Made by a program: the position numbers and the translations under genes. Positions 11,670 through 11,918 of a stretch of 64,000 bases of DNA are shown here, one piece after another. Within the stretch, counting starts at the first letter, position 1, and every line of letters begins with the position of its first letter. The stretch comes from Periplaneta americana (Eukaryota; Arthropoda; Insecta; Blattodea; Blattidae): positions 95,622,501 through 95,686,500 of the forward strand of contig NC_091124.1 of assembly GCF_040183065.1 (NCBI RefSeq), written 5' to 3'. The notes below the pieces were generated by a model. That model searched no databases. It saw nothing but the letters and a program-made list of their open reading frames with translations, and had not been told where the DNA came from.

Positions 11670-11721
11670 AAATAATTGATTAAATGGCGATCTTACTTGT
11701 GTTAATTATGTAAGCATGTGT

Positions 11722-11765
11722 GGCTTACAGATGTTTCGGTGCTATTCGACACCATCCTCAGAGCC
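11722..11765 (-). ncRNA. Candidate type I hammerhead ribozyme (left arm)
   Basis: This is the mirror of the motif at 11823-11866, read on the minus strand. The CTGAGGA core, stem II GGTG/CACC, GAA, GTA triplet and stem I GGCT/AGCC are all kept. Stem III reads ACAT/CTGT, so one pair of the self-complementary stem is lost. Of the 44 bases only this position differs from the other arm. Confidence 0.45.
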
Positions 11766-11822
11766 TACACGAACGCACCCACACAACAGGCAGCGAAGTT
11801 GAGATAGCGCCGAGATCTAGTA

Positions 11823-11866
11823 GGCTCTGAGGATGGTGTCGAATAGCACCGAAACAGCTGTAAGCC
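11823..11866 (+). ncRNA. Candidate type I hammerhead ribozyme (right arm)
   Basis: Stem I GGCT (11823-11826) pairs with AGCC (11863-11866). The core CTGAGGA (11827-11833) fits CUGANGA. Stem II GGTG/CACC (11835-11838, 11847-11850) encloses a short loop. GAA (11851-11853) follows. Stem III ACAG/CTGT (11854-11861) is self-complementary with no loop, and the cleavage triplet GTA is at 11860-11862. One extra T (11834) sits between core and stem II. With so short a stem III, cleavage would probably need a dimer. Activity is inferred only. Confidence 0.5.
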
Positions 11867-11918
11867 GCACATGCTTACATAATTAACACAAGCAAGATCG
11901 TCATTTAATCAGTTATTT

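What the first reader, a model, noticed from the sequence alone, without database searches (positions are those of the whole stretch)
11670..11918. Two head-to-head hammerhead-like ribozyme motifs inside a 99-bp-arm inverted repeat
Each arm carries a near-complete type I hammerhead layout: stem I GGCT/AGCC, CUGANGA core, stem II GGTG/CACC, GAA, a self-complementary stem III and a GUA cleavage triplet. The only deviations are an extra U after the core and, in the left arm, one lost stem III pair. From memory, Penelope-like retroelements carry very similar boxes, so this could be the end region of such an element, processed by self-cleavage. An inverted pair could produce opposite-strand ribozymes or a dimer-like foldback.
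Basis: partly seen in the sequence, partly recalled or inferred. Interest (0 to 1): 0.8.

Follow-up and report, generated by a model that had tools for sequence, protein, structure and literature searches.

The report
Ribozyme-bearing Penelope retrotransposon insertion, inverted
The palindrome is one insertion of a Penelope-like jumping element, made of two DNA copies joined head to head that each carry a hammerhead-ribozyme-like box; the kind is known, but its copies show a strikingly regular two-ended insertion pattern that can be tested.

Summary
The palindrome is real (100-nt arms, 95% complementary). It is one whole insertion of a high-copy Penelope-like element (PLE) in what is, by assembly statistics, the American cockroach. 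Each arm is a cDNA of the element's 3' end: ORF end, hammerhead-like box, tail. Relatives supply RT, a GIY-YIG motif, and 5' ends with the same box about 95 nt before the ORF start. Of 45 two-armed insertions, 44 join one short- and one long-tailed cDNA; 35 of 45 have 10-15-bp target repeats, control 1.8%. Best reading: reverse transcription began on both target strands, at two RNA sites, as shown in vitro for an anole PLE. For the ribozyme: conserved core and palindromic stem III beside a variable loop II, and one other PLE family with different stems but the same layout, extra U included. Against: no Rfam hit, no covariation within the family. Here the box is locked in a -176 kcal/mol hairpin, so this copy is probably inert. 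New member of a known kind.

The parts
11616..11628 (.). left copy of the target-site duplication TATTTAATTAATC
   Evidence: control
11629..11768 (-). first cDNA (antisense on the + strand): 3' end of the PLE with LONG tail
11629..11668 (-). long-tail extension; its outer end corresponds to the ORF start codon of relatives with a 5' end
11722..11765 (-). hammerhead-like box, left arm (stem III ACATCTGT, palindrome broken); predicted cut between 11726 and 11725
11767..11768 (.). 2-nt microhomology (AC) where the two cDNAs meet
11767..11919 (+). second cDNA (sense): end of ORF region, box, SHORT tail
11823..11866 (+). hammerhead-like box, right arm: GGCT/AGCC, CTGAGGA, extra T, GGTGT/GCACC, GAA, palindrome ACAGCTGT, A; predicted cut between 11862 and 11863
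11863..11919 (+). short tail
11914..11926 (.). right copy of the target-site duplication (11914-11919 overlap the short-tail end)

Best explanation
The palindrome is one insertion of a Penelope-like element. The element RNA carries a hammerhead-like box followed by a tail, both before and after its ORF (inferred from separate copies; no fetched locus spans a whole element). The element endonuclease cuts both strands of an AT-rich target about 11 bp apart. Each free 3' end then primes reverse transcription inside the tail: one at the short site, the other about 40 nt further 3' (the long site, at the ORF start codon). Both cDNAs copy toward the RNA 5' end, mostly through the box, stop early, and are joined at a microhomology, giving an inverted repeat with outward-facing boxes. 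The box is most likely a minimal type I hammerhead that works mainly as a dimer through its self-complementary stem III. Shown: anatomy, tails, target duplications, junctions, RT ORF. Inferred: the order of events, two templates, and ribozyme activity. This copy itself is a truncated, probably inert insertion.
For: Relatives: first-look candidates 2101 for the palindrome, 1765 for the EN region, 3834 for the RT region, 303 for the N-terminus, 40 scored in each. RT domain PF00078 E 2.2e-7; motif YKLTCNSCDSFYIGQTGRSFQTRYKEH. Tails: 44 of 45 arm pairs one long and one short, 10 of 10 among loci found with the tail-free body query. Direct repeats of 10-15 bp in 35 of 45 pairs, against a mean of 1.8% when flanks of different insertions are compared. 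Five-prime ends: of 8 loci taken upstream of the N-terminus, 3 (L078, L080, L082) have a sense box plus tail directly before the ORF. Box: non-CpG changes in core 12 of 868 cells, stem III 12 of 824, loop II 74 of 588; 78 of 92 complete boxes keep all core letters tested. Minimum-energy fold of two copies is the double hammerhead for 3 of 5 boxes tested. Another PLE family, L091, has the same layout with stem II GCCAAT/ATTGGC and palindrome AACGTT. In vitro precedent: an anole PLE protein cuts and extends both strands and starts RT at two sites bounding the tail; its hammerhead works only with the protein (PMC11167929, main text read).
Against: No Rfam hammerhead hit at E<=10. No covariation above shuffled controls in 56 distinct boxes. 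Energy gained on dimerising is no larger than for shuffles in any of 5 boxes, and L091's dimer fold is not a clean double hammerhead. 13 of 14 downstream stretches from other GIY-YIG hits show no box within 0.7-0.8 kb by the scan. The anole study saw no difference in RT start between strands in vitro, and its ribozyme mutants still inserted. 12 of 60 loci showed no second arm or tail in the stretch held. Pfam GIY-YIG support for this family's EN is below cut-off (SegE_GIY-YIG E 0.021). The copies studied are the best-scoring ones, not a random sample.
Confidence: 0.85

Rival explanations
1. Same PLE and same insertion route, but the conserved box is not a working ribozyme in this family: it is a protein-binding or translation-start element 5' of the RT start sites that keeps a hammerhead look by descent.
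For: No Rfam hit; no covariation; 110 of 116 arm matches begin upstream of the cut site; anole PLE mutants of the ribozyme still insert (PMC11167929).
Against: Conserved core and palindrome beside a loop II with many variants; one other family keeps the layout, the extra U and a palindromic stem III with unrelated stem letters.
Confidence: 0.3
2. The inverted repeat arises by self-priming or fold-back of one cDNA or antisense RNA, not by two primings on the two target strands (proposed for rotifer PLEs).
For: PMC3846280 passages propose self-priming for palindromic PLE junctions.
Against: Both outer ends abut the target duplication, at two different RNA positions, one of each in 44 of 45 insertions; inner junctions fall at many places, often with short microhomology.
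Confidence: 0.08
3. A MITE or other DNA transposon with terminal inverted repeats.
For: Short palindrome, high copy number, direct repeats of mostly 10-13 bp.
Against: Arms are not equal at their outer ends; interiors of longer copies code for RT and a GIY-YIG motif.
Confidence: 0.01
4. A microRNA or hairpin-siRNA gene; Rfam reports mir-458 at E 4e-6.
For:: mir-458 at 34.7 bits and other miRNA families, all below gathering score.
Against: Six different miRNA families match, two of them on both strands, as expected of a long hairpin; the hairpin is made anew by each insertion, with inner junctions that differ between copies. Small RNAs from it remain possible.
Confidence: 0.03

Closest known systems
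Penelope-like elements of the Penelope/Poseidon kind; Poseidon of Anolis carolinensis (PAc), PMC11167929 (main text read)
   Same: ORF with RT and GIY-YIG; hammerhead motif near the ORF start; tail between two RT start sites; AT-rich target.
   Different: In PAc the ORF begins at stem II of the box and RT starts 111-118 bp into the ORF; here the ORF begins about 95 nt after the cut site and the long RT start sits at the start codon. Insertions here show one long and one short tail.
Penelope families of the rotifer Adineta vaga, PMC3846280 (passages seen)
   Same: Inverted pseudo-LTRs, a 31-bp tail on one of them, 8-10-bp target duplications.
   Different: The passages describe single copies; here 45 pairs allow a count. 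Extension about 40 nt, duplications mostly 10-13 bp.
Minimal type I hammerheads of PLEs that cleave as dimers (Lunse et al. 2017; Cervera and de la Pena 2014; known to me only as cited in PMC7761336 and PMC6466107, passages)
   Same: Weak or absent monomeric stem III, palindromic sequence there, tandem placement in terminal repeats.
   Different: Here an 8-nt palindrome and an extra U between CUGANGA and stem II; whether those papers list such variants could not be read.

Membership tests
Penelope-like element | reverse transcriptase ORF | tested here: met
   PF00078 E 2.2e-7, above cut-off, in L075:2539-3534; motifs SFDVTNLYTNMP, EGLPMGSPISS, RYVDDIL (motif names recalled)
Penelope-like element | RT falls in the Penelope clade of a tree | not tested
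   No tree was built
Penelope-like element | C-terminal GIY-YIG endonuclease | tested here: inconclusive
   Motif clear by eye; Pfam SegE_GIY-YIG E 0.021, below cut-off. Whether the PF01541 matches include this family was not checked.
Penelope-like element | pseudo-LTRs in direct and inverted order, tail on one end | tested here: met
   Inverted. Direct: L026 holds two sense boxes and L080 has EN end, box, tail, ORF start in a row. No fetched locus spans a whole element.
Penelope-like element | short target-site duplications at AT-rich sites | tested here: met
   35 of 45 with 10-15 bp
type I hammerhead ribozyme | core CUGANGA ... GAA ... NUH with three stems | tested here: met
   one extra U; stem III 2 bp plus tetraloop as monomer or 8 bp as dimer
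type I hammerhead ribozyme | match to the Rfam covariance model | tested here: not met
   No hammerhead family at E<=10. I therefore call it hammerhead-like and do not file it as an Rfam member.
type I hammerhead ribozyme | compensatory changes in stems | tested here: inconclusive
   Within the family not above shuffles; between this family and L091 stem II is wholly different and still pairs, one comparison only
type I hammerhead ribozyme | self-cleavage after NUH | not testable with these tools
   Needs RNA
metazoan retrozyme (PMC7229834, passages) | non-autonomous, non-coding units of about 170-400 nt | tested here: not met
   Longer copies code for RT and a GIY-YIG motif

The most novel reading that the evidence does not exclude
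The palindromic stem III is a dimer-linkage signal: it pairs two element RNAs in the double-hammerhead fold, so that each PLE complex carries two templates, one for each end of the cut target. The two templates are used at different start sites (one short, one long), and ribozyme cutting, possible only in that dimer, is held off until reverse transcription has passed. This would tie the unexplained ribozyme of PLEs to their two-ended insertion.
Probability: 0.13. Interest if true: 0.8.

Novelty: new member of a known kind. Interest (0 to 1): 0.45.

Why it matters
The role of hammerheads in Penelope-like elements is described as still a mystery (PMC7761336, passage), and the in vivo insertion steps are not settled. 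A cockroach family with some 2100 candidate copies gives a natural record of insertions. The pairing of one long with one short tail in 44 of 45 insertions suggests that the two ends of the target are not treated alike in vivo, which the in vitro anole system did not show. That is a sharp, testable rule for models of PLE insertion, and a natural set in which RNA 5' ends made by the ribozyme could be mapped.

Tried and rejected
MITE/DNA transposon, miRNA gene and retrozyme were considered and rejected (see rivals and membership). Search of viral contigs for a 21-nt piece of the box: 0 hits. Search of phage records: one chance-like match, E 0.3. Test for cDNA ends at the ribozyme cut site as fossils of cleaved RNA: of 116 arm matches, 6 end within -6..0 of the cut, only one of them exactly at 0, some with microhomology to the partner cDNA, and 5 end at -43; inconclusive. 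Stem I extension GTGT/ACAC in the window's left arm (z -1.64) was dropped: its 5' side comes from the junction with the other cDNA. Covariation inside the family: none above control. Dimer energy gain: not above shuffles. A covariance model R1 was built and not used.

Full report
Observation. The window holds an inverted repeat with 100-nt arms at 11669-11768 and 11820-11919, 95% complementary. A layout scan finds only these two places in the window and none in 300 Markov sequences of equal length. Since the arms copy each other, this is one motif seen twice. Rfam 15 does not call it a hammerhead at E<=10. The miRNA families it matches instead (six, one more, all below gathering score) are what a long hairpin would yield.

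Copies. A search of the window's own genome with the palindrome gave 2101 first-look candidates; 40 were scored, giving 87 matches. The genome has 3,231,669,367 bases in 91 contigs; a published Periplaneta americana assembly has 3.2 Gb in 91 scaffolds, 17 of them holding 98.93% (PMC12774602, passages seen), so the host is very probably the American cockroach. Loci were fetched around 60 places (L002, L006 and L029-L038 were dropped because larger fetched stretches cover the same places). They hold 108 arms. These are best-scoring copies, not a random sample; L044 and L047 look like one insertion present at two places.

What the arms are. Upstream of the box, longer copies code for a protein that ends in HTGVYKLTCNSCDSFYIGQTGRSFQTRYKEH..., a GIY-YIG motif of the Penelope kind (the resemblance is recalled, and the Pfam match is below cut-off). 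Further upstream lies a reverse transcriptase (PF00078 E 2.2e-7). The N-terminal region has 303 candidates. Of 8 loci taken just upstream of it, 3 (L078, L080, L082) have a sense box and tail followed directly by an ORF beginning M(D/E)(C/Y)Q...TSQLV...RIKTIKAS..IRFN; 2 (L077, L079) have the box inverted; 3 (L076, L081, L083) have no box, though L081 keeps the end of the tail. So the box lies before the ORF in some copies and after it in others, as in a Penelope-like element with terminal repeats; no fetched locus spans a whole element.

Two tails. Downstream of the box the arms end in one of two ways: short (...CAATTATTTA) or long, some 40 nt more (...GATTCAACATG and a few further letters). 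Local-alignment scores to the extension are split, 5-10 against 30-40. Of 45 outward-facing pairs (from 44 loci), 44 have exactly one of each. The exception, L026, pairs a short arm with an inner chimeric arm whose outer neighbour is long. By source, 34 of 35 pairs from the palindrome query and 10 of 10 from a body query without tails are unequal. With equal odds, 44 or 45 of 45 has probability 1.3e-12. Of the 16 loci with one arm found, four have a tail-only partner and all four are short-with-long (L023, L046, L048; L041 weak, E 0.07); in L048 the box-side arm stops before the short site. The other 12 showed no partner in the stretch held. L073, fetched later, also pairs long with short. The long end coincides with the start codon of the ORF.

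Target sites. The two outer flanks share direct repeats of 10-15 bp in 35 of 45 pairs, most often 11 bp; when left and right flanks of different insertions are compared the mean is 1.8%. In the window the repeat is TATTTAATTAATC, at 11616-11628 and 11914-11926. The inner ends of the cDNAs fall at many places, often with short microhomology; in the window the two cDNAs meet at AC, 11767-11768.

How it was made. In vitro, an anole PLE protein cuts and extends both strands of the target and starts reverse transcription at two sites inside the RNA that bound the 'tail' (PMC11167929, main text read). The cockroach copies are what such a reaction would leave: two cDNAs, one on each target end, joined in the middle. 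What stands out here is the regularity: one short and one long start per insertion. The anole paper reports no difference in start site between strands, and the rotifer paper calls the tail optional on one of the inverted repeats (PMC3846280, passages seen). In what I read neither states a strict rule. Of the other papers in the listings I saw titles and abstract openings only, or passages of some, so I do not claim that the rule is absent from print.

The box. In the arms aligned to one reference, non-CpG changes are 12 of 868 cells in the core, 12 of 824 in the 8-nt stem III, 36 of 1374 in stems I and II together, 142 of 5030 in the tail and 74 of 588 in loop II. Core against tail gives p 0.011 and stem III against tail p 0.025, but copies share ancestry, so these are not independent trials. 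The four middle letters of stem III, which would be a loop in a monomer, changed in 5 of 412 cells, which fits an intermolecular stem better. 91 of 101 complete stem III copies are the perfect palindrome ACAGCTGT. Two boxes in RNAcofold give a minimum-energy fold that contains the double hammerhead (-34.3 against -13.2 for one box); with shorter ends it is the exact minimum for 3 of 5 variants tested, not for the window's left arm or L080, and the energy gain is no larger than for shuffles in any of the five. Pair counting on 56 distinct boxes gives 95.4% paired cells and no covariation above shuffles. Diverged copies change loop II and the fifth pair of stem II (UG, UA, CG) and include CTGATGA and CTGAAGA cores.

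Another family. A GIY-YIG profile search of the genome found 7669 candidates, 150 scored, 108 matches. Of 14 stretches taken downstream of such matches, which fall into some seven sequence groups, one, L091, has the same layout with other letters: GAT-CTGAGGA-T-GCCAAT.ATG.ATTGGC-GAA-AACGTT-T-GTC, including the extra T and a palindromic stem III. The other 13 have none within 0.7-0.8 kb by that scan. L091's predicted dimer was not a clean double hammerhead, and its copies could not be sought. At least ten pairs among the 108 matches lie inverted and within about 10 kb, so the architecture may be general.

What this copy can do. A transcript of the window's palindrome folds into a -176 kcal/mol hairpin, in which the right box's stem II has probability 0, against 0.68-0.84 when the left arm is absent. 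Each strand has only one sense box, and the left box has a broken palindrome. I take this copy as inert, with hairpin-derived small RNA as the only plausible product.

Role of the ribozyme. 110 of 116 arm matches begin upstream of the predicted cut site, so for most inserted templates the 3' box was not cut before copying. That agrees with the anole result that ribozyme mutants still insert. A cut in the 5' box would leave an mRNA beginning about 95 nt before the start codon. That PLE hammerheads can cleave as dimers is published (as cited in PMC7761336 and PMC6466107; originals not held). That an extra nucleotide after A9 is tolerated in a viroid hammerhead is recalled, not checked.

Verdict. 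A new family of a known kind: a Penelope-like element with a hammerhead-like box. The palindrome is a normal product of its two-ended insertion. The tail rule and the palindromic stem III make a bolder idea testable, that the box links two templates.

Noticed in passing
window 13144-13542 (+): Alpha-amylase family exon (PF00128 E 7e-21), probably an alpha-glucosidase gene, about 1.2 kb from the insertion.
   Followed up: no
window 7771-9195 (+): Non-LTR retrotransposon RT fragment, 475 aa open (PF00078 E 1e-38).
   Followed up: no
window 29797-31479 (+): Open 561-aa Mutator-like transposase (PF20700 E 5e-66).
   Followed up: no
window 34783-36148 (+), 58881-59474 (-): hAT-type pieces (DUF659, Dimer_Tnp_hAT) and a mariner-type transposase (PF01359).
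   Followed up: no
window 12360-12421, 13760-13832, 15760-15832, 39603-39675 (+): tRNA-like matches that look like heads of tRNA-derived SINEs; the first only at E 9.
   Followed up: no
genome, one search list: At least ten pairs of GIY-YIG matches lie in inverted order within about 10 kb (for example C12:28904562 - and 28906153 +), as in this family.
   Followed up: partly
L001 and L060: Two insertions with different target duplications share the same inner cDNA junction (GAGCCTAC/ACACGAACGC and GGGCCTAC/ACACGAATGC), a recurrent joining site or a shared history.
   Followed up: no
L001, L008, L025, L060, L071: Five cDNA inner ends fall at the same place, 43 nt upstream of the predicted cut, just outside stem I.
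   Followed up: partly
L023, L041, L046: Second cDNA only 27, 16 and 49 nt long, yet of the expected long-tail type (L041 weak).
   Followed up: partly
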